Notes under the pieces: generated by a model
The model's database searches: none
What the model saw: the letters and a program-made list of their open reading frames with translations, nothing else
What the model was told of the DNA's origin: nothing
Assembly (NCBI RefSeq): GCF_000284315.1
Contig: NC_017094.1
Location: 1,581,486 to 1,645,485, forward strand
Reading direction: 5' to 3'
Source: Leptospirillum ferrooxidans C2-3
Lineage (GTDB): Bacteria > Nitrospirota > Leptospirillia > Leptospirillales > Leptospirillaceae
Length of the DNA: 64,000 nucleotides
Shown: positions 2,038 through 11,142 of the stretch, in pieces
How the letters are laid out: each line of letters opens with the position of its first letter
Numbering within the stretch: the first letter of the stretch is position 1
Position numbers and translations under genes: made by a program

Positions 2038-2711
2038 CTGAAATTCCTTTCAAAAAAACATCATTGTCATCTTGCATTAAACTAAAAGGATATGGACTCA
2101 TTCTTCACCAGAATACATTGAACAATCCCTACAATCCAAAAAAGAAACAGAAGAGTGGCTCCTCTTGCCAGGAACGTTGAAATCAATCGGAGCATCTCAA
2201 GGGACTAAAACTTGAGTTTGATACGGTTGGGAAAGCGGATACAACTCCAATATTTATCCTCTTCAATCAGGAGAACGGAGCAAACTGAGCGTAAAAAAAC
2301 AACCCGTTTACTCCAGGGAGAGAGAAAAAAGGATCCTTGCCGGCTTCATGCACAGAATCCTTTCTGAACATTCCCTCCCTGAAGATTAAAAAGAACCCAG
2401 AACAGTATACACTGCCCATCCCTGGATTCCCCCCTCAATGAGAGGTTATATCATTGCCAATGAGAATGCCCCAGACAATCAGGAATTATCGGTTTGAAGA
2501 CCAGAGAACATGTCCCCGATAGTTGGCCAACTCTTTTTTGATCGTTTAAAACTTGAACATTTGCCCGCGCATAATGGAATGGTCCGTGCAGCCTGGGGTG
2601 GGATGCCGGCTCCCGATCGGGTATTCTTTCCGGGACAAAAATAGGGAGAGGCGCCAAGAACGCCTCTCCCCCACACGCAAAACACCCTTTTCAATTATGT
2701 AAGGAGAACGC
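2038..2711. other. intergenic region; left non-coding flank of the IS110 element
   Basis: No convincing gene is seen. The part next to the M16 gene (2038 to about 2430) is AT-richer and should carry its promoter, but no clear -35/-10 pair was recognised. From about 2450 to 2711 base composition becomes GC-rich like the IS110 gene, and there are several self-complementary stretches (TTGGCCAA near 2523, CCCGATCGGG near 2613, and a perfect hairpin at 2644-2670). This is probably the left end of the IS110 element. IS110-group elements encode their bridge RNA in this position, so a structured RNA here is plausible but unproven. Confidence 0.4.
2644..2670. repeat. perfect 10-bp stem hairpin upstream of IS110 transposase
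   Basis: GGGAGAGGCG (2644-2653) pairs perfectly with CGCCTCTCCC (2661-2670) across a 7-nt loop. It lies 41 bp before the transposase ATG. No T-run follows on either strand, so it is a poor terminator candidate. It could insulate the transposase from read-through or form part of a bridge-RNA fold. Confidence 0.6.
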
Positions 2712-3625
2712 ATGAAAGTCGAGACCCCGAAGAAGACGAAAATCACTCCGGAATCCACCCTTGTCACCGTTTGCGTCGATCTGTCCAAGAACACGTTCCA
2801 TGTGGTGGGTCTTGATGCCGAAGGGAAGAAGATCCTGCGGCGGAAATTCCATCGGGAAGGCTTCCGGGACTGGCTGGCTCGCCCGGAGCTTCCCCGTGTC
2901 ATCGTGGCGATGGAAGCCTGCGGCGGAGCCCAGTGTTGGGGGCAGGTTTGCCAGTCTCTGGGGCATACGCCGATGCTGATTCCTCTGCATCACGTCAAGC
3001 CCTTTGCCACCTCCCAGAAGAATGATTTCAATGTGCGACGTGAAAAGTCGCTTGCAGGAGCTGTTCTGTAGGAAGAACCCACTGTTCAGCCAGTGGAGCC
3101 CACCGACACATGCGGGAGGAGTAATCGTCCGGTATGAAGCTGTCGGAAACGTACCCGCGGGGAACCGTAGGACAAGTCGTGAGAGGAATCCGAACCTGGT
3201 AGCAACGACCGGGGAGGGGCAAGGGCTAGACGGGAAAGGTCAACCCAGGTGAATCGTCGCAAGCATCGTTACGTTTGACAAGCTCAAGTTGCTGGCCAAG
3301 GCTTGAACCAAAAGGTAAGCGGGTTGGTAGATCTTCTGTTGTATAGGATTTACGCTGACGACAACTCCCGCCGGTGTACAGACGAGACCTTCCCCCATCG
3401 CACGCTCATCAAGCGGAACACGACAACCCCGTATGCCTGCCCTTCGGGGCAAGCCAACCGCAAGGAAGGCCCTTGGGCATGCGGGCGAAGGAAGCCGGAA
3501 AAAGCGAAGGCCCGGCGGTAATCGCCGGGATAGGGGTTCATGCCCTGCCCCGAAAGGGGGCCCACGTCCGGCTGATGCTCAATCACAAATTCTTCTGAAC
3601 GTTTTGCAGAGAAAGGTTGACGTAG

Positions 3626-5083
3626 ATGACGGAAACCCCGCCAACGTTGCCCCATCGCTCCTTCACGCACTGGGGCCTTATCGACTGGTCCCGAGTCGAG
3701 AGGGTGGTAAAAGGACTTCAGACGCGCATTGTGAAGGCCACGCAAGAGGAAGACTGGGGAAAAGTCAAAGACCTCCAGCGTCTTCTGACACGCTCGTTCT
3801 TCGGTCGACTTCTGGCCGTGAAGCGAGTGACAGAAAACCAAGGAAAGGCAACGCCGGGTGTGGACGGAGTGATCTGGTCCACCCCGGAATCGAAGATCCG
3901 AGCCCTGCCGACCCTGAAACGGGAGGGATATCAATCCCAACCGCTCCGAAGGGTCTTCATTCCGAAAAGCAACGGCAAGATGCGGCCGCTTGGCATCCCC
4001 ACCATGAAGGACCGAGCCATGCAGGCGCTTCATCTGCTGGCTCTGGATCCGGTGGCGGAAACGCGGGCGGACGGAAGCTCCTATGGCTTCCGACCGGGGC
4101 GGTCGACCGCAGATGCGAGAGCACATCTCTTTCTTCTGTTGGCCAGTCGCAAACGCTCTCCCTGGGTCCTTGAAGGGGACATCGAAGCCTGCTTCGACCG
4201 GATCAGCCACGACTGGTTGGTGTCCAACGTTCCTATGGACAAGACCATGCTTCAACAGTGGCTGAAGGCAGGAGTGATTCACAAAGGAGAACTCCAACCC
4301 ACGAAGTCCGGGACCCCGCAGGGCGGAATTATTTCGCCTGTGCTCGCTAACTGGGCCTTGGACGGTCTAGATCTCTGGCTTAAAACATGGTCGGAAGGAA
4401 AGGGCCTCCATCTCGTGCGTTATGCCGATGACTGGATTCTGACCGGGCCTTCGAAAGACGTTCTGGAAAGGGCCAAGGAGCGCATACAGGAGTTTCTGAC
4501 GGAACGGGGAATGACCCTGTCTCCGACGAAAACCTTTATTGCCCACATCGACGAGGGGTTCAATTTTCTCGGGTGGAATTTCCGAAAGTATTACGGGAAG
4601 CTCCTGATTAAACCGTCGGAAAAGAATGTGAAAGCGATTCTGACGAAAATCCGGGATTGGGTTAAAGGACACAAACAGGCGCAGCAAATCGACGTGATTG
4701 GCTTTCTGAATCCGCTGATCCGTGGGTGGTCCAACTACCACCGCGGGGCCGTCGCCAAGGAAACCTTCGCCCATGTGGATTCCAAGATTTTCGAGCTGTT
4801 ATGGCAATGGGCCAAACGCCGACATCCGAGGAAAAGCGCCCGATGGATCAGGGAACGTTATTTTCACACCATCGGGACACGAATCTGGGTGTTTGCGGAC
4901 CAAGACGACAAGGGAAATTGGGTATCGCTGGTCAAAGCCAGCGATACGAAGATCGTAAGACACGTCAAGGTCAGGAAAGAAGCCAACCCCTACGATCCCA
5001 TCTGGAAAACATACTTCAAGGACCGCCACAAGCGGAAGCGAGAAGCATTCGGAGAAGAAAGATGGGGCATGGCTGAACTGTGA
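3626..5083 (+). CDS. ltrA: group II intron reverse transcriptase/maturase
   Basis: A 485-residue intron-encoded protein. It contains the RT0-RT7 blocks: TPGVDGVIW near residue 80, KMRPLGIPTMKDR (RT2-3), YGFRPGRSTADA, LEGDIEACFDRI (catalytic Asp), SGTPQGGIISP (RT4) and the RYADDW catalytic box at residues 265-270, followed by the FLGWNF block and a maturase (X) domain with FLNPLIRGWSNYHRG. It should assist splicing and reverse-transcribe the intron at the target. The protein ends at EERWGMAEL, just where an HNH endonuclease domain usually starts; no CxxC or HNH residues follow, so it appears endonuclease-less. Start ATG 3626 has no strong RBS. Confidence 0.95.
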   Translation: MTETPPTLPHRSFTHWGLIDWSRVERVVKGLQTRIVKATQEEDWGKVKDLQRLLTRSFFGRLLAVKRVTENQGKATPGVDGVIWSTPESKIRALPTLKREGYQSQPLRRVFIPKSNGKMRPLGIPTMKDRAMQALHLLALDPVAETRADGSSYGFRPGRSTADARAHLFLLLASRKRSPWVLEGDIEACFDRISHDWLVSNVPMDKTMLQQWLKAGVIHKGELQPTKSGTPQGGIISPVLANWALDGLDLWLKTWSEGKGLHLVRYADDWILTGPSKDVLERAKERIQEFLTERGMTLSPTKTFIAHIDEGFNFLGWNFRKYYGKLLIKPSEKNVKAILTKIRDWVKGHKQAQQIDVIGFLNPLIRGWSNYHRGAVAKETFAHVDSKIFELLWQWAKRRHPRKSARWIRERYFHTIGTRIWVFADQDDKGNWVSLVKASDTKIVRHVKVRKEANPYDPIWKTYFKDRHKRKREAFGEERWGMAEL

Positions 5084-5189
5084 AGAGGAAAGAGCGCACC
5101 TGCGCCTGAAGCCTTCATCCCATTGTCTTCAACAGCGCCACCAAGGTTGGAAAGCGCGACCGGCTCCCTCAAGGGGCTTATGAGTGTTC

Positions 5190-5224
5190 GAGCCACGGTG
5201 AAGGGAAACTTTCACGCCGGGTTC
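5190..5224 (+). ncRNA. group II intron domain V
   Basis: A 35-nt hairpin starting GAGCC and ending GGGTTC with an internal GGGAAA turn, the typical size and shape of the catalytic domain V. It lies about 105 nt after the maturase stop and 41 nt before the intron 3' end, the spacing expected for domain V followed by domain VI. The GC-rich stem at about 5228-5262 is the domain VI candidate. Confidence 0.85.
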
Positions 5225-5583
5225 CTCGGGGGCTTGGGACCTGAAAGGGTCCCCGGCTACCCTACGATGCGGAGGCTATTGGGGAAGCTTCTCTTCGCCC
5301 TCGCACCACAAGGGTTCCCGTCAAGACGCCCGAGCAGCAGGATCTGGCGATGCTGATCTCCGCCCGGCAGGGGCTGATCAACGACCGGACGGCTCTGGTA
5401 AACCGGACCCGGGCGTTTCTTCTGGAAAGAGGCTTCGTCCTTCCCCTGGGGATTGCGGCTCTCCAAAACCGGCTTCCAGAGCTTCTGGACGACGGAGCAA
5501 ACAGCCTGACGCTGGTCACTCGCACGCTGATCCGGGAGCTTCAGGCCCAGATCCGGTCTCAGACGGAAAAGATCGGGGAGATC

Positions 5584-5591
5584 GATGCGAT
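5584..5591. repeat. target site duplication, left copy (pair at 8049-8056)
   Basis: GATGCGAT occurs immediately before the left TGT terminus and immediately after the right ACA terminus of the IS21 element. Eight bp is within the 4-8 bp range known for IS21 insertions, and the exact duplication argues for a simple recent insertion. Confidence 0.92.
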
Positions 5592-5708
5592 TGTAAATCG
5601 TAAAATAGATTTGACCCTTTATTGAAAGATAAAACTGACCCCCCTTCGAAAAGAAAATTGTTAAAGTCCTCTCAGGAATATCTTGAGAGGAGGGAAGGGG
5701 TGGTCAGC

Positions 5709-7181
5709 ATGTATCTGTGGCAGAAGATTCGGATGATGCGGGAAAACAAGCAAGGGATTAAAGCGATTGCCCGGACATTGAAGCTTTCAAGGAATACCGT
5801 GAAAAAGTATCTCCGATCTGCGGAGCCTCCGGTTTTTCACAAACGAGAGTACGCCCGGAAGATTGCGCCGTATGAAGGTCGGATCGTCGAGATGGTTCGG
5901 AAGCGGTACATCGGGACCCGGATCTATGAGGAGCTGGTGGCGGAAGGATATCGGGGATCCCTGAAGACCTTGTACAACCATTTGTCCCGGATTCGATCTG
6001 AAGAGCGGGAGAAAGCCCGAAGCACCGTTCGGATGGAAACGGGGCCGGGAGAGCAGATGCAGTACGACTGGACCGAGTGGGAGATTGATTGGGGGGGAAC
6101 AGTCCAGACGGTTTATATCCATGCCGTGGTTCTGGGCTACAGCCGGCTGACCCATTTTTCCTGTTCCGCCACGATCCGCCAGGAGGATGTGATGAAAGCG
6201 CTGGAACGGGCCTTTGCCTTTTTCGGAGGAACCTGCCGAACGCTTCTGATGGACAACGGGAGCCAGATGGTGGTGGAGAACCGGAAGGAGAAAGGCGTCC
6301 GCTTCAACGAGTCCTTCCTGATGTTTTGCGGCCTGTACGGGATCGATCCGGAAGCCTGCCAGCCCTATCGCGCCCGTACGAAGGGAAAAGTCGAGCGGAC
6401 CTTCTTCTCGCTCAAGGAACGGGGGCTCCGGGGCAAGAAGGTGTCGGACTGGGGCAGCCTGGAGAATCTGCTCCAGACCTTCACCCGGACCTTCAACCAG
6501 CGCCGTCACCAGACCCTTCACGAAAAGCCGGTGGACCGCTTTGAACATGAGAAGTCCCTTCTTCGGCCCTTGGTCCCGGTCGATCCCCGGCGCCTCTACG
6601 AAGGCGAAATCCGGAAAGTCAGCTCCGACGGATATATTCGGTGGGATGGACACGCCTATCCCGTTCCCATGCGTTTCTGTGGACGGAGTGTCTGGGTGAC
6701 CGTGGAGTCAGGAATCCGGCTGACGGTATGGGGAGAGGGGGAGACCCCGCTCCTCACCCATCCTCTTCGAACCGGTTCCCCGGACCCCCTTCCGCCGCAC
6801 CCGGAGCATCAGGAGGCCGAACCCCGACGGAAGAAGCGCCGGGAAGGGCTCCGGGCCCGATGGGTGGGCCGGTTCCGGGAACGGTTCGGGGAAGAGGTCG
6901 AGCCCTTTCTGGAGGGGCTTCAGGAAGCGACCGGACCGAACTTCACGTGGCATGTCTCCGAGATCGTGGAACTTCTGGAGCGGTACGACCCCGAAGAGGG
7001 ACGGCGGGTCCTTCGGGAGGCCCAGGCATGTCAGGGGTTCCATAAAAACTTTCTCCGTCCGCTCCTCCGGCCGGAGTGTCTTCTTCCGGTGCCGGAAGGC
7101 ATGGCTCTGCCGATGGGAGCCTCTCTTACGCGTTCTCTCGACTGCTATGGGGGACTCGGAGAGGAGGTGTGCCATGACTGA
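5709..7181 (+). CDS. istA: IS21-family transposase IstA
   Basis: The 490-residue DDE transposase of the IS21 element. An N-terminal helix-turn-helix (IKAIARTLKLSRNTVKKYL, residues 17-35) is followed by a retroviral-integrase-like core with Asp120 (MQYDWTEWE), Asp182 (LLMDNGS) and Glu229 (KGKVER), then the Mu-type beta-barrel region around YIRWDGHAYPVP. I chose ATG 5709 because a GGAAGGGG purine stretch precedes it and family members start near MYLWQKIRMM; the frame is open further upstream to the element end. It works with the ATPase IstB, whose gene overlaps the istA stop. Confidence 0.95.
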   Translation: MYLWQKIRMMRENKQGIKAIARTLKLSRNTVKKYLRSAEPPVFHKREYARKIAPYEGRIVEMVRKRYIGTRIYEELVAEGYRGSLKTLYNHLSRIRSEEREKARSTVRMETGPGEQMQYDWTEWEIDWGGTVQTVYIHAVVLGYSRLTHFSCSATIRQEDVMKALERAFAFFGGTCRTLLMDNGSQMVVENRKEKGVRFNESFLMFCGLYGIDPEACQPYRARTKGKVERTFFSLKERGLRGKKVSDWGSLENLLQTFTRTFNQRRHQTLHEKPVDRFEHEKSLLRPLVPVDPRRLYEGEIRKVSSDGYIRWDGHAYPVPMRFCGRSVWVTVESGIRLTVWGEGETPLLTHPLRTGSPDPLPPHPEHQEAEPRRKKRREGLRARWVGRFRERFGEEVEPFLEGLQEATGPNFTWHVSEIVELLERYDPEEGRRVLREAQACQGFHKNFLRPLLRPECLLPVPEGMALPMGASLTRSLDCYGGLGEEVCHD

Positions 7182-7986
7182 CCTCCACCAGCGGATCACT
7201 CAGCAACTCCGGACCCTGAGTTTAAAGGGACTGATCGACCTTTACCGCCCTCTGGCCGAAGAAGCGGCCAAGAACCAGCTCCAGTACGAGGAATACCTGG
7301 CTCTTCTTCTGGATGAAGAAACCCGGGGAAAGACCGACCGGTCGGTCCGCACCAAAATAACTCTGGCCCGGTTCCCTTTCCTCCGCACCCTGGAGGAGTT
7401 CGACTTTTCTTTCCAGCCCTCCCTGGAGGAAAAAACCTTGGTCCGCTTGGGAACGCTCGACTTTCTGGAGAAGGCCGAGAATCTTGTTTTCCTTGGACCG
7501 CCTGGCGTCGGGAAAACACATCTGGCCGTGGCGATCGGCATCAAGGCCTGCCAAGCCAAAAAGCGCGTTCTGTTCCTCACCCTCCCCGCTCTCTTGCGGG
7601 ATCTGTCTCTGTCGGTCCGGAACGGCACCCTGCCGGCGAGCCTCCTGGCATATTCCCGGTACCATGTCCTGATCATCGACGAGGTCGGATACACCCCGAT
7701 TACCCGGGAAGAGGCCAACCTGCTCTTTCAGCTGGTCTCCATCCGTTACGAGAAAGGATCGATCCTTCTGACCAGCAACTACGGGTTCGAAGACTGGGGA
7801 AAGATCTTTCCTGACTCTGTCGTGGCGGCGGCCATTATTGACCGGCTGGTTCATCATGCCCGGATTTTCCCTATCCAGGGATCGAGCTATCGTGTCCGGG
7901 ACAAAATCCATCGGCGAAAGAGCGCAAAACCATCCCCATCTTCGCTTATCTCGCAAGGGGAAGGAGAAATCAAAGCCTCACTTTAA
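7174..7986 (+). CDS. istB: IS21-family transposition ATPase IstB
   Basis: A 270-residue DnaA/DnaC-like AAA+ ATPase that helps IstA select target DNA. Walker A is GPPGVGKT (residues 108-115), Walker B is VLIIDEVGY (near 170), and sensor residues lie in LLTSNYGFEDWG. ATG 7174 overlaps the istA stop by 8 nt and has a strong GAGGAGG ribosome binding site. About 60 bp of non-coding end sequence with TTGACC-type repeats separates its stop from the right terminus. The gene appears complete. Confidence 0.95.
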   Translation: MTDLHQRITQQLRTLSLKGLIDLYRPLAEEAAKNQLQYEEYLALLLDEETRGKTDRSVRTKITLARFPFLRTLEEFDFSFQPSLEEKTLVRLGTLDFLEKAENLVFLGPPGVGKTHLAVAIGIKACQAKKRVLFLTLPALLRDLSLSVRNGTLPASLLAYSRYHVLIIDEVGYTPITREEANLLFQLVSIRYEKGSILLTSNYGFEDWGKIFPDSVVAAAIIDRLVHHARIFPIQGSSYRVRDKIHRRKSAKPSPSSLISQGEGEIKASL

Positions 7987-8495
7987 CCGGGAGGAAGGGG
8001 GGTCAATTTTATTTTTCAAAAAGGGGTCAAAAGTAGTTGCAATCTACAGATGCGATGATGAAAATGCTTGTCCGTAGCAACGAGACGGGTCGGCGTCTTC
8101 AGACAGTTCCAGGAGTGGGGCCCTTGATTGCAGCCGCCCTGATCTCCGTCATCGGGGATCCGAAACGCTTCGGGAGTGGGCGGGATATGGCGGCCTTTTT
8201 AGGCCTTGTTCCAAGTCAGCATACATCGGGAGACAAGGTGCGTCTGGGAAGGGTCACTAAACGGGGGGACAGCGGGTTGCGAAGTCTTTTGGTGCAGGGA
8301 GCACAGGCTGCGCTTCGAGCGGCGGAGCTGAGTGGATCCGGAAAAATGAAGGACGGCAAGCTCCGAACATGGCTTCTGGATCTACTGAAGCGCAAGGATA
8401 CCCGCAACAAGGCGGTCGTGGCCCTGGCCAACAAGATGGCGCGCATGGCCTGGGCGATCTGGAAAAACGACACGGTGTACACGGCGGCCGCATGA

Positions 8496-9101
8496 GCAGC
8501 TCAAAGGTGAAAAACCGGCATGAACGCTCTCTTGCGTCACCACGGAGACCCTGATGAAGACATAACAGATCGGCAAGGCAAGAAAAACAAGTGAGTTTCC
8601 CTCCCGTAGTACGGTTGCAAAGGACCTGACGATGGCCGGAACGGACACCTCCTGCCGAGAGCCCTGAAAGCGAATGGCCCAAAACATCGAGGCCGCACTC
8701 ATATTGATGACTTCTGGTGCACGGCAGGCGCGAATCATCCATCGTGGCTACGGAATGCGTTCCGATAAGCCGAATATATTGGGGCGACCGATTCCTCCTT
8801 GTAGAGAATCGAGTCTCTAAAGAGGTCAGCGCAGTGAATCTTTCGACGCGTTCAACCGGGAAGAAAACACAAAAAGACAGACCCTCGTCAAAAGGGGATT
8901 CAGGGGAGAGTTTTGTCCTGATCCCAAAAAGAGGGAGCCGGAATTCTGCCCCAGGAGGAAAGTTCAGCGAGAGTTCTTGAGGGGAACAGGCTTTCGAAGC
9001 CGTGCGCATTATCGAATACGCTGACAGTCAAAGAGAGAAAACCTCTTGACTTTCTGCCCGGACCATATATTCCCCTTCTTCGACCACAGGCCGAGAGAGG
9101 G
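8496..9101. other. non-coding region between IS110 3' end and tnpA
   Basis: No gene is seen. The first roughly 300-400 bp keep the composition of the IS110 element and probably form its right end; IS1111-type relatives place their bridge RNA downstream of the recombinase, so this is a second candidate site for a structured RNA. At 8904-8930 there is a sequence closely resembling the right flank of tnpB (11010-11034). At 9027-9050 an imperfect hairpin GTCAAAGAG...CTCTTGAC may belong to the left end of the tnpA-tnpB element. Confidence 0.4.
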
Positions 9102-9548
9102 TCAAGCGGACGATTTTGTTTTTCTTCTTCCCGCTTTTTCAGTTGTTCCTTGAGCTTCCACATAGCGACGGACCGTTTCCAGTGTCGCTCCGCCCACACT
9201 CCCCACATAGTAGGCCCGATGCCAGAAATACGGTTCCCGGTAGAACGGCTTGAGATGCTCCGAAAATCGGTTGCGAACACGCCTGGAAGAGGCCGTTTTC
9301 AGATTGTTGATCAGGGTGGAGATGTTGAGTGCCGGGTGGATCTCCGCCAGAAGATGCACATGATCCGCTTCCCCTCCGAATTCCAGCAAGGTGCATCGCC
9401 ATTCCGCCAGAATCTCGCCGAAGGCGCCCTGCAAATATTCCAGAAGATCCGGAGCGAGCGTCTTGCGCCGATACTTTGTCACAAAGACAATGTGCAGCTT
9501 GAGAGAATAGACGGCATTGGATCTTGACTTGTTTGGTTGAGTTTCCAT
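9102..9548 (-). CDS. tnpA: IS200/IS605-family transposase TnpA (Y1 HUH)
   Basis: A 148-residue single-strand DNA transposase that excises and inserts the element as a circle using one catalytic tyrosine. The HUH pair is His63-Val-His65 in ADHVHLL and the nucleophile is Tyr129 in VRRYVEAQG; family length and the LHIVFVTKYRRKTL start also fit. The C-terminal tail is short and basic. It starts at ATG 9548, divergent from tnpB. All catalytic residues are present, so it may be active. Confidence 0.95.
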   Translation of the reverse strand: METQPNKSRSNAVYSLKLHIVFVTKYRRKTLAPDLLEYLQGAFGEILAEWRCTLLEFGGEADHVHLLAEIHPALNISTLINNLKTASSRRVRNRFSEHLKPFYREPYFWHRAYYVGSVGGATLETVRRYVEAQGTTEKAGRRKTKSSA

Positions 9549-9571
9549 GTAAGCAAAGTTATCATGCTCCC

Positions 9572-11005
9572 ATGCAGACCGGCAAGCGCCTTCGCGCCTA
9601 TCCCACTCCCGCCCAGGAACAGATCCTGCTCCAATGGATCGGACACCAGCGGTTCATCTACAACGCCAAGGTCTCCGAGGACCGGTATTACTGGGCCTTC
9701 GCCAAAAAAGCGGTCTCTCTTTCGGGAACGCCCGTTCCCGTCGATCAGGAGTATGCCCGTTTCATCGGCCCGGAGACCTCCTGGCTCCGGGAGGTTCCCT
9801 CCCAGATACTCCGTAACGGAGCGGTTCGCTGGAAACAGGCGATGGGACGATTCTTTTCCGGACTCGCCAGAAAACCCGTCTTCCAGAGAAAAGACGGACG
9901 GCAGTCGGTCTGGATCACCTCTGAACTCTTCCGCTTTCGGACCAACGACGAAACGCAATTCGAAGAACTGATTCTCGGAACAAAGAAGTTCCCGGTGGGG
10001 GTTCTGCCCTTCAAGGCCCATACCCCGTATTCCCGTCCCGCCTCGCTTCACGTCTCGGTCGAGGCCGGGAAGTGGTTCGTCTCCTTCTCCTCGGACGACG
10101 GACTCCCGGAGCCGAAGGAAGAGGACACGATCTCCTGGCTCCGGATGTTTTCGGAAGAGGAGCTTGAGGGCAAAACCCTGGGCTTCGACCGGGGCGTGAC
10201 GATTCCGGTGATGGCAAGCGATGGGCGAAGGATCGATTTCTCCTCCGTCCAGAAGATCCGGATGGAGAAGAAAGAACGGGCCAAAAAACGCTGGCAACGA
10301 AAACTCTCCCGACAGGTCAAAGGCTCGAACAACCGGAAGGAGAGCAAAACCCGGCTCTCCCGGACCTTCGAATATGCGAAGAACGTCCGCAAAGATGTGA
10401 TCCACAAGGCCACCCATGACCTCGTCTCCGATCCCGACCGGACCCTTTTCGTCGTCGAGGATCTCAAAGTCAAAAACATGACGAAGAGGCCGGAACCCAA
10501 ACAGGAGGATTCGGGAGGGTATGCCAAGAACGGAGCCCGCGCCAAGGCCGGACTCAACTGGGCGATCCTGTCGTCCTGCTGGGGTCTGTTCGTGGTGCTC
10601 CTGTCCTACAAAGCCCGGAGATCCGGAAAGCTCGTCATCAAGGTCTCTCCTCAATTCAGTTCGCAGGAATGCGCCCGGTGCGGGCACATTCATCCGGACA
10701 ACCGGCCTTCCCAGGCCGGGTTCGTCTGCCAGCGCTGTGGACTCGCGGACAACGCCGATCTCAACGCCAGCCGTGTCATCGCCAAGAGGGGCATTCGTCT
10801 TCTTCTGGAAGGGAAAGTCCCGCAGAAGACGATTCGGCGGTGCGGGATCGGAAAACTCAAAACACTAGGGCCGGAACGGTCCGAAGTCAAAGCCTCCGGA
10901 GAGGACGATAAGACGCGAAGGACCAAACGCCTTCGCGCATCCTCGGCGAAAGAGGAACTTCCGCTCGCGAGATCGGAAACCCCTCCTACAGCGCAAAGCG
11001 CTTAG
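9572..11005 (+). CDS. tnpB: TnpB, RNA-guided nuclease of IS605-type element
   Basis: A 477-residue TnpB. Characterised TnpB proteins are guided by an RNA made from the element right end (omega RNA) and cut target DNA, helping the element persist. The RuvC residues are all present: Asp206 (LGFDRG), Glu296 (FVVEDL) and Asp396 (NADLNAS). A four-Cys zinc ribbon is at Cys367, Cys370, Cys386 and Cys389. About 70 charged residues follow the last catalytic Asp, a long tail compared with compact TnpBs. ATG 9572 is preferred over an in-frame start at 9524 because it begins the conserved KRLRAYPTP region and avoids overlap with tnpA. The stop lies inside the right-end hairpin, so the gene 3' end also encodes omega-RNA scaffold. 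Confidence 0.95.
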   Translation: MQTGKRLRAYPTPAQEQILLQWIGHQRFIYNAKVSEDRYYWAFAKKAVSLSGTPVPVDQEYARFIGPETSWLREVPSQILRNGAVRWKQAMGRFFSGLARKPVFQRKDGRQSVWITSELFRFRTNDETQFEELILGTKKFPVGVLPFKAHTPYSRPASLHVSVEAGKWFVSFSSDDGLPEPKEEDTISWLRMFSEEELEGKTLGFDRGVTIPVMASDGRRIDFSSVQKIRMEKKERAKKRWQRKLSRQVKGSNNRKESKTRLSRTFEYAKNVRKDVIHKATHDLVSDPDRTLFVVEDLKVKNMTKRPEPKQEDSGGYAKNGARAKAGLNWAILSSCWGLFVVLLSYKARRSGKLVIKVSPQFSSQECARCGHIHPDNRPSQAGFVCQRCGLADNADLNASRVIAKRGIRLLLEGKVPQKTIRRCGIGKLKTLGPERSEVKASGEDDKTRRTKRLRASSAKEELPLARSETPPTAQSA

Positions 11006-11008
11006 GAG
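10983..11008 (+). ncRNA. right-end hairpin, probable 3' scaffold of the TnpB omega RNA
   Basis: CTCCTA-C-AGCGC / GCGCT-TAGGAG forms an 11-bp stem with one bulged C and an AAA loop. It overlaps the tnpB stop codon at 11003-11005. In known IS605 elements the omega RNA covers the tnpB 3' end and right-end hairpin, and the guide is the adjoining flank. Here that flank would begin soon after GAGAGTTCAT, near 11022. The RNA 5' boundary cannot be read from sequence alone. Confidence 0.6.
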
Positions 11009-11142
11009 CGGGAGAGTTCATTTCTGATCCCAGAATGGATCGTGATAGAAAATCATTGGGCGATTGAAAATTTTTCCTGAGCTTTCCTGAAAAGAACCTC
11101 AATATTCCCAACTGGCAACCGAGGTGTTTCATCAGGACAATG

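What the first reader, a model, noticed from the sequence alone, without database searches (positions are those of the whole stretch)
2712..8495. Nested mobile elements: IS110 gene holding a group II intron and an IS21 element
Three unrelated elements sit in one 5.8-kb gene. Both insertions have sharp, sequence-readable borders (intron GTGCG...CTAC; IS21 with GATGCGAT duplication), and their removal restores a single 361-codon DEDD transposase frame. This records at least two separate recent events and shows that the IS110 copy was intact when hit.
Basis: seen in the sequence. Interest (0 to 1): 0.72.

Follow-up and report, generated by a model that had tools for sequence, protein, structure and literature searches.

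The report
Four mobile elements nested together
A bacterial jumping gene of the IS110/IS1111 kind landed in the end of an older IS605 element, then took in a self-splicing group II intron between the codons of two likely catalytic residues, and was finally broken by an IS21 element; each part is of a known kind, but the guide RNAs behind two of the insertions can be read directly from the DNA.

Summary
An IS110-family gene (2712-8495) holds a group II intron (3033-5265) and an IS21 element (5592-8048, 8-bp duplication). Removing both restores a 361-codon DEDD transposase that aligns end to end with an uninterrupted relative. Intact IS605 copies in the same genome show the empty site, and orthologous loci in three relatives lack the whole block. 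The element's downstream non-coding region carries two short segments matching the two sides of its target; the same correspondence holds in sister elements with other targets, so insertion was probably guide-RNA-directed. The intron lies between the codons for two likely catalytic aspartates and lacks the HNH endonuclease. It occupies the same site in diverged IS110s of two related genomes, but intron and exon relationships conflict (100% bootstrap each way), so the intron moved between IS110s by itself. Only the IS21 insertion is demonstrably recent. Precedents exist: RmInt1 in ISRm2011-2 for intron-in-transposase, IS4321/IS5075 in Tn21 termini for IS1111 in element ends. New member of known kinds, unusually legible.

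The parts
2553..2571 (+). Left end of the IS605-like element, left of the IS110 insertion point (TTGAACATTTGCCCGCGCA)
   Evidence: Identical 19-bp stretch directly followed by TTCCCCTTCTT in uninterrupted copies in the same genome, L194 and L195
2572..9069 (+). Complete IS110-family (IS1111-type) element including its two insertions; about 1.8 kb without them
   Evidence: Left boundary shared by 18 distinct left ends and right boundary by 5 distinct right ends in related genomes; joined flanks equal the empty site
2578..2590 (+). Left sub-terminal inverted repeat ATGGTCCGTGCAG, 7 bp inside the left end
   Evidence: 12 of 13 bp match the right repeat (sequence printed)
2712..3032 (+). IS110 transposase, exon 1 (codons 1-107)
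3033..5265 (+). Group II intron, phase 0, sense orientation, between codons 107 and 108 (KNDFN | DAEAI)
3338..3343 (+). Inferred EBS1 of the intron, GTTGTA (pairs 5/6 with its own 5' exon TTCAAT, 6/6 with TACAAC of the G005 IS110)
   Evidence: Position fixed by perfect 6-mer complementarity to the 5' exon at the same place in 23 related introns, some near-duplicates; alignment
3626..5083 (+). Intron-encoded reverse transcriptase/maturase, 485 aa, YADD present, no HNH endonuclease
   Evidence: PF13655, PF00078, PF08388; relatives carry a C-terminal HNH, this protein and its G005 homologue do not
5188..5265 (+). Intron domains V and VI
   Evidence: RF00029, 44.5 bits
5266..5591 (+). IS110 transposase, second segment (codons 108-216), ending with the first copy of the IS21 duplication
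5584..5591 (+). IS21 target-site duplication GATGCGAT, first copy
5592..8048 (+). IS21-family element, ends TGTAAATCG / CAATCTACA
   Evidence: Second copy at G000:328639-331095, 3 differences in 2457 bp, with its own 5-bp duplication GTTCC
5709..7181 (+). IS21 istA transposase
   Evidence: PF00665, PF22483
7174..7986 (+). IS21 istB ATPase
   Evidence: PF01695, E 1e-77
8049..8056 (+). IS21 target-site duplication GATGCGAT, second copy
8057..8495 (+). IS110 transposase, last segment including most of PF02371
8610..9069 (+). Downstream non-coding region of the IS110 element, candidate seekRNA/bridge RNA source
   Evidence: Conserved in 5 copies; predicted consensus fold has 12 of 83 pairs with changes on both sides, but the summed covariation term is unfavourable, so structural support is weak
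8980..8986 (+). Guide segment for the right side of the target: AGGGGAA = reverse complement of TTCCCCT
   Evidence: Own-target match is the longest in all 5 elements with a known right flank
9004..9009 (+). Guide segment for the left side of the target: GCGCAT
   Evidence: Own-target match is the longest in all 3 elements with a known left flank
9054..9066 (-). Right sub-terminal inverted repeat (ATGGTCCGGGCAG on the - strand), 3 bp inside the right end
9070..11021 (+). Rest of the IS605-like element that holds the IS110
   Evidence: Homologous copies of about 1.95 kb in the same genome at 83-91% identity over full length
9102..9548 (-). IS605-like tnpA (Y1 transposase)
   Evidence: PF01797, E 6e-37
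9524..11005 (+). IS605-like tnpB
   Evidence: PF07282, PF01385, PF12323

Best explanation
This is a four-element nest built in a fixed order. First an IS200/IS605-like element (tnpA/tnpB) inserted between the M16-peptidase and pnp genes. Then an IS1111-type member of the IS110 family inserted about 20 bp inside the IS605 left end, most likely directed by its own non-coding RNA, whose two guide segments match the two sides of that target. Next a group II intron without endonuclease domain entered the IS110 transposase gene in sense orientation between codons 107 and 108, by base pairing of intron RNA with the DNA encoding the conserved KNDxxDA motif; splicing would restore the transposase mRNA, so the IS110 could remain functional. 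Last an IS21 element inserted further downstream and destroyed the transposase. Shown from sequence: elements, borders, empty sites, guide-target correspondence, and that intron and IS110 have different histories. Inferred: RNA-directed insertion, splicing and the retrohoming route.
For: IS605 first: G005, G001 and G002 have the flanking genes side by side with 264-390 bp between the matched stretches, where the window has 9.06 kb. IS110 in IS605: two uninterrupted IS605 copies in the same genome read GCCCGCGCA|TTCCCCTTCTT where the window has the IS110; about half of 18 distinct IS110 left ends in the family abut the same TTGAACATTTGCCCGCGC-like stretch. Guides: in all 5 elements with a known right flank and all 3 with a known left flank, the longest guide match is to the element's own target (5-8 nt and 6 nt; random chance of 6 or more about 0.8% each). 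Intron: Rfam and protein domains; same codon junction in G005 and G016 IS110s. Separate history: intron ORF 93% nt identical between G000 and G016 while their IS110 exons are 75% identical, with identity dropping at the splice site; intron closest pair G000-G016 and exon closest pair G005-G016, each 100% of 10,000 bootstraps. EBS1 of this intron pairs 6/6 with the G005 IS110 exon but 5/6 with its present host. IS21 last: 3 differences from a second copy, perfect duplication, absent at this place from the other IS110s.
Against: No expression or splicing data. The intron EBS1 has a mismatch with its present exon, so splicing here may be poor. The order intron before IS21 rests on comparison, not on an intermediate in this species. 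In G016 the 5' exon is not on the contig. The predicted fold of the non-coding region is weakly supported. G000 and G017 share one target, so the guide test has four independent targets, not five.
Confidence: 0.87

Rival explanations
1. The intron entered an ancestral IS110 once and has been inherited with it ever since; no independent homing is needed to explain the shared site in G000, G005 and G016.
For: Same phase-0 junction in all three; intron-bearing IS110s occur in related genomes.
Against: Exon and intron distances conflict with 100% bootstrap in both directions, and fourfold-site differences G000-G016 are 12% in the intron ORF but 38% in the exon. Recombination exactly at the splice site would be needed to save it.
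Confidence: 0.08
2. The IS110 inserted into the IS605 end by ordinary weak sequence preference or by chance; the guide-like matches are coincidence.
For: Matches are short (5-8 nt) and no RNA has been shown to be made.
Against: Five elements match their own targets at the same aligned place, with four different targets, on both sides wherever both flanks are known; the arrangement is what seekRNAs of IS1111 elements show (PMC11187229).
Confidence: 0.07
3. The whole block is an inert relic: intron and IS110 were already dead before nesting, so the nest records nothing about function.
For: IS110 is single-copy apart from fragments in this genome; the intron has one full copy and one 90-nt remnant.
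Against: All reading frames (transposase segments, intron RT, istA, istB, tnpA, tnpB) are open and the intron borders and domain V are intact.
Confidence: 0.15

Closest known systems
RmInt1 group II intron in ISRm2011-2 (Sinorhizobium meliloti; PMC4238363, PMC5894124)
   Same: Group II intron whose protein lacks the endonuclease domain, homing into an insertion-sequence transposase gene in sense orientation; splicing decides whether transposase is made; relatives of the same IS are also hit.
   Different: Host IS is IS630-Tc1 family, intron is class D/IIB3; here the host is an IS110/IS1111 DEDD transposase, and most homologous introns in the collection carry HNH.
IS1111-type elements that target other mobile elements: IS4321/IS5075 in Tn21-family terminal repeats, others in attC or REP (PMC11187229 and its references)
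   Same: DEDD transposase, sub-terminal inverted repeats with 7-bp and 3-bp extensions, long downstream non-coding region, target read from short RNA segments, no target duplication.
   Different: Target here is the left end of an IS605-like element.
[quoted passage not shown]
   Same: A mobile element exploiting the conserved catalytic codons of a transposase as a dependable target.
   Different: There the guest is an IS110; here the guest is a group II intron and the IS110 is the host.
Bacterial twintrons (Thermosynechococcus elongatus, PMC2882425)
   Same: Group II introns nested in group II introns, comparable with the G016 relative seen here.
   Different: In the window itself the intron is not a twintron.
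IS21 family (istA/istB)
   Same: Both genes, TGT...ACA ends, short target duplication.
   Different: Nothing unusual; duplications of 8 bp here and 5 bp at the second copy.

Membership tests
IS110 family, IS1111 group | DEDD transposase with PF01548 and PF02371 domains | tested here: met
IS110 family, IS1111 group | Sub-terminal inverted repeats of 11-13 bp, 7 bp from the left and 3 bp from the right end | tested here: met
   12 of 13 bp; 7 bp and 3 bp; definition from PMC11187229
IS110 family, IS1111 group | Longer non-coding region downstream of the transposase gene | tested here: met
   about 574 bp downstream against 140 bp upstream; conserved across copies
IS110 family, IS1111 group | RNA segments matching both strands of the target | tested here: met
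   (sequence match only; RNA not shown)
IS110 family, IS1111 group | Phylogenetic placement with IS1111 rather than IS110 transposases | not tested
   no tree with ISfinder reference sequences was made
Mobile group II intron | Ribozyme with conserved 5' GUGYG, domain V and 3' AY | tested here: met
Mobile group II intron | Intron-encoded RT with maturase domain | tested here: met
   PF13655, PF00078, PF08388
Mobile group II intron | EBS1-IBS1 pairing with the 5' exon | tested here: inconclusive
   5 of 6 with own exon, 6 of 6 with sister exon
Mobile group II intron | Self-splicing and retrohoming | not testable with these tools
   needs RNA and mobility assays
HNH-bearing group II intron lineage (its nearest relatives) | C-terminal HNH endonuclease in the intron protein | tested here: not met
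   present in L066 and many others, absent here and in G005
IS21 family | istA integrase and istB ATPase, overlapping, with inverted-repeat ends and target duplication | tested here: met
IS200/IS605 family | Y1 tnpA and tnpB, several copies with common ends | tested here: met

The most novel reading that the evidence does not exclude
A small lineage of endonuclease-less group II introns in the Leptospirillum family has specialised on IS110/IS1111 transposase genes, using the codons between two catalytic aspartates as a dependable landing site and passing from one diverged IS110 to another, so that production of an RNA-guided transposase depends on intron splicing.
Probability: 0.35. Interest if true: 0.55.

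Novelty: new member of a known kind. Interest (0 to 1): 0.42.

Why it matters
Each part is of a known kind, but the nest is unusually readable: order of arrival, empty sites for the outer layers, and the RNA segments that appear to have chosen two of the targets can all be taken from sequence. It gives a natural example of an IS1111-type guide aimed at the end of another IS family, and a second transposase family, after IS630-type ISRm2011-2, in which an endonuclease-less group II intron sits in the catalytic core and would make transposase production depend on splicing. The set of sister elements with different targets would let guide rules for this branch of IS1111 be tested directly.

Tried and rejected
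Tested whether distant relatives of the intron protein also sit in IS110: they do not. The clean cases sit in sense orientation in many other conserved genes (for example SNF2-like helicases, HU-like proteins, IS3-type transposases, other intron proteins), read by eye from junction peptides without a database test; some automatic 3' borders there are false. An early EBS2 candidate (ATCGTT) was dropped because that stretch is conserved in all introns whatever their exon. The ORF-deleted intron copy in G016 (L146) sits at a site that does not match its EBS1; unexplained. The shared GATGCG at the intron's 3' exon and the IS21 duplication was taken as chance, since the second IS21 copy has a different duplication. 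A plasmid search for other intron-split IS110s gave only intact transposases among the rows listed. Literature searches found no earlier report of a group II intron in an IS110 gene, but the library lacks most subscription journals. A Pfam comparison for HNH was first run on a cut-off protein and repeated on the full one.

Full report
Observation. The intron starts GTGCG at 3033 and ends CTAC at 5265; Rfam finds RF02012 at 3078-3220 (105 bits) and RF00029 ending exactly at 5265. The IS21 runs 5592-8048 between two copies of GATGCGAT, and its ends are fixed independently by a second copy in the same genome with 3 differences in 2457 bp and its own 5-bp duplication GTTCC. Removing both gives a 361-aa frame with DEDD_Tnp_IS110 and Transposase_20 domains, collinear over residues 1-360 with an uninterrupted homologue in G017 at 59% identity and with plasmid IS110 transposases at about 45%.

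Genome. The window lies at 1581486-1645485 of a closed 2.56-Mb genome. A same-genus genome appears to be the record named Leptospirillum sp. (contig of 6198 bp with the same coordinates), so a Leptospirillum-like host is likely.

Outer layer. Multiple alignment of ends shows that the IS110 element runs 2572-9069. Immediately right of it lies an IS605-like element with Y1 tnpA and tnpB. Two uninterrupted copies of that element in the same genome read ...TTTGCCCGCGCA|TTCCCCTTCTT..., where the window has ...TTTGCCCGCGCA-[IS110]-TTCCCCTTCTT.... The IS110 therefore sits about 20 bp inside the left end of an IS605-like element, without duplication. In G005, G001 and G002 the flanking genes are side by side with 264-390 bp between the matched stretches instead of 9.06 kb, so the whole block is an insertion in this lineage.

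Type and guide. The element has sub-terminal inverted repeats (12 of 13 bp) 7 bp from the left and 3 bp from the right end, and its longer non-coding region is downstream; both are IS1111 features (PMC11187229; PMC11208160). In that region a short hairpin (GGCTTTCGAAGCC) is preceded by AGGGGAA, the reverse complement of the right target side, and followed by GCGCAT, identical to the left side. In sister elements these segments change with the target: CTGAA/GAGAGT in G005, CGGAAT in G016, GAAAT in a remnant copy, AGGGGAAT/CGCGCT in G017; own-target matches are the longest in every case. The consensus fold of the wider region has some compensatory changes but an unfavourable summed covariation term, so the guide claim rests on the target correspondence, not on the fold. 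About half of 18 distinct IS110 left ends in the family abut the same IS605-like end.

Intron. The intron protein has RT and maturase domains but ends where relatives have an HNH endonuclease. Insertion is phase 0 and in sense, between codons 107 and 108: KNDFN|DAEAI. Two of the DEDD residues are expected at D105 and D108; this assignment rests on the motif and on the weak alignment with the IS621 structure, where KTDTVDA aligns with KNDFNDA, so it is likely rather than proved. Unspliced RNA would give a protein lacking D108 and the whole second domain; splicing would restore it.

Independent movement of the intron. The same intron occupies the same junction in IS110s of G005 and G016. Between window and G016, intron ORF identity is 93% and exon identity 75%, fourfold-site differences 12% against 38%, and identity falls at the splice site. 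The closest pair is G000-G016 for the intron ORF and G005-G016 for the exon, each in 100% of 10,000 bootstraps. The EBS1 position, fixed by perfect complementarity to the 5' exon in 23 related introns (some near-duplicates), reads GTTGTA in the window. It pairs fully with TACAAC of the G005 IS110 but has one mismatch with TTCAAT of its present host; the G005 EBS1 GTTGGA pairs fully, with two G-U pairs, with the window's exon (pairings counted by eye). The simplest reading is that the intron reached this IS110 from another one. Distant relatives of the intron sit in many other genes, so preference for IS110 is at most a property of this small lineage.

Order. IS605, then IS110, then intron, then IS21. 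The last step rests on near-identity to the second IS21 copy and on absence of IS21 at this place in other IS110s. The intron step cannot be called recent.

Known context. RmInt1 in ISRm2011-2 is the direct precedent for an endonuclease-less group II intron in a transposase gene, with splicing limiting transposase (PMC4238363; PMC5894124). IS4321/IS5075 in Tn21 ends are the precedent for IS1111 elements in ends of other elements, and ISEc21 for use of catalytic transposase codons as target (PMC11187229). The parts are therefore new members of known kinds. No earlier report of a group II intron in an IS110 gene was found, within the limits of the library.

Limits. No RNA or mobility data. G016 lacks the 5' exon and left flank. 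Four independent targets support the guide reading. The replication-strand preference expected of endonuclease-less introns was not tested.

Noticed in passing
L145 (G016:C111:8000-16546, reverse strand): The intron in the G016 IS110 is itself interrupted within the reverse-transcriptase YADDW codons by a second group II intron, and an IS21 94% identical to the window's lies in or next to that second intron: apparently IS110 > intron > intron > IS21. The contig ends before the left borders.
   Followed up: partly
L146 (G016:C2:1-3500, reverse strand): A copy of the intron with most of the ORF deleted (positions 1-719 joined to 2117 onward) at a site outside IS110 that does not match its EBS1.
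   Followed up: partly
L150 (G000:1327000-1332000) and L151 (G004:C42): A 90-nt 3' remnant of the intron, 93% identical, lies about 30 bp from an inverted IS110 right-end remnant, at the same arrangement in two species; origin unexplained.
   Followed up: partly
G005 intron, L147:1395-3657: The G005 intron begins TTACG instead of GTGCG and its first 230 nt and last 70 nt are much more diverged than its ORF, which suggests recombination between introns; it may be splicing-defective.
   Followed up: no
18 IS110 left ends in 6 genomes: About half of the IS110 left ends in the family abut IS605-like left ends, so IS605 ends may be a standing target for this IS110 group.
   Followed up: partly
L066-L144: Loss of the HNH domain appears several times among relatives of the intron protein (for example Chlorobiaceae and Rhizobium copies).
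   Followed up: no
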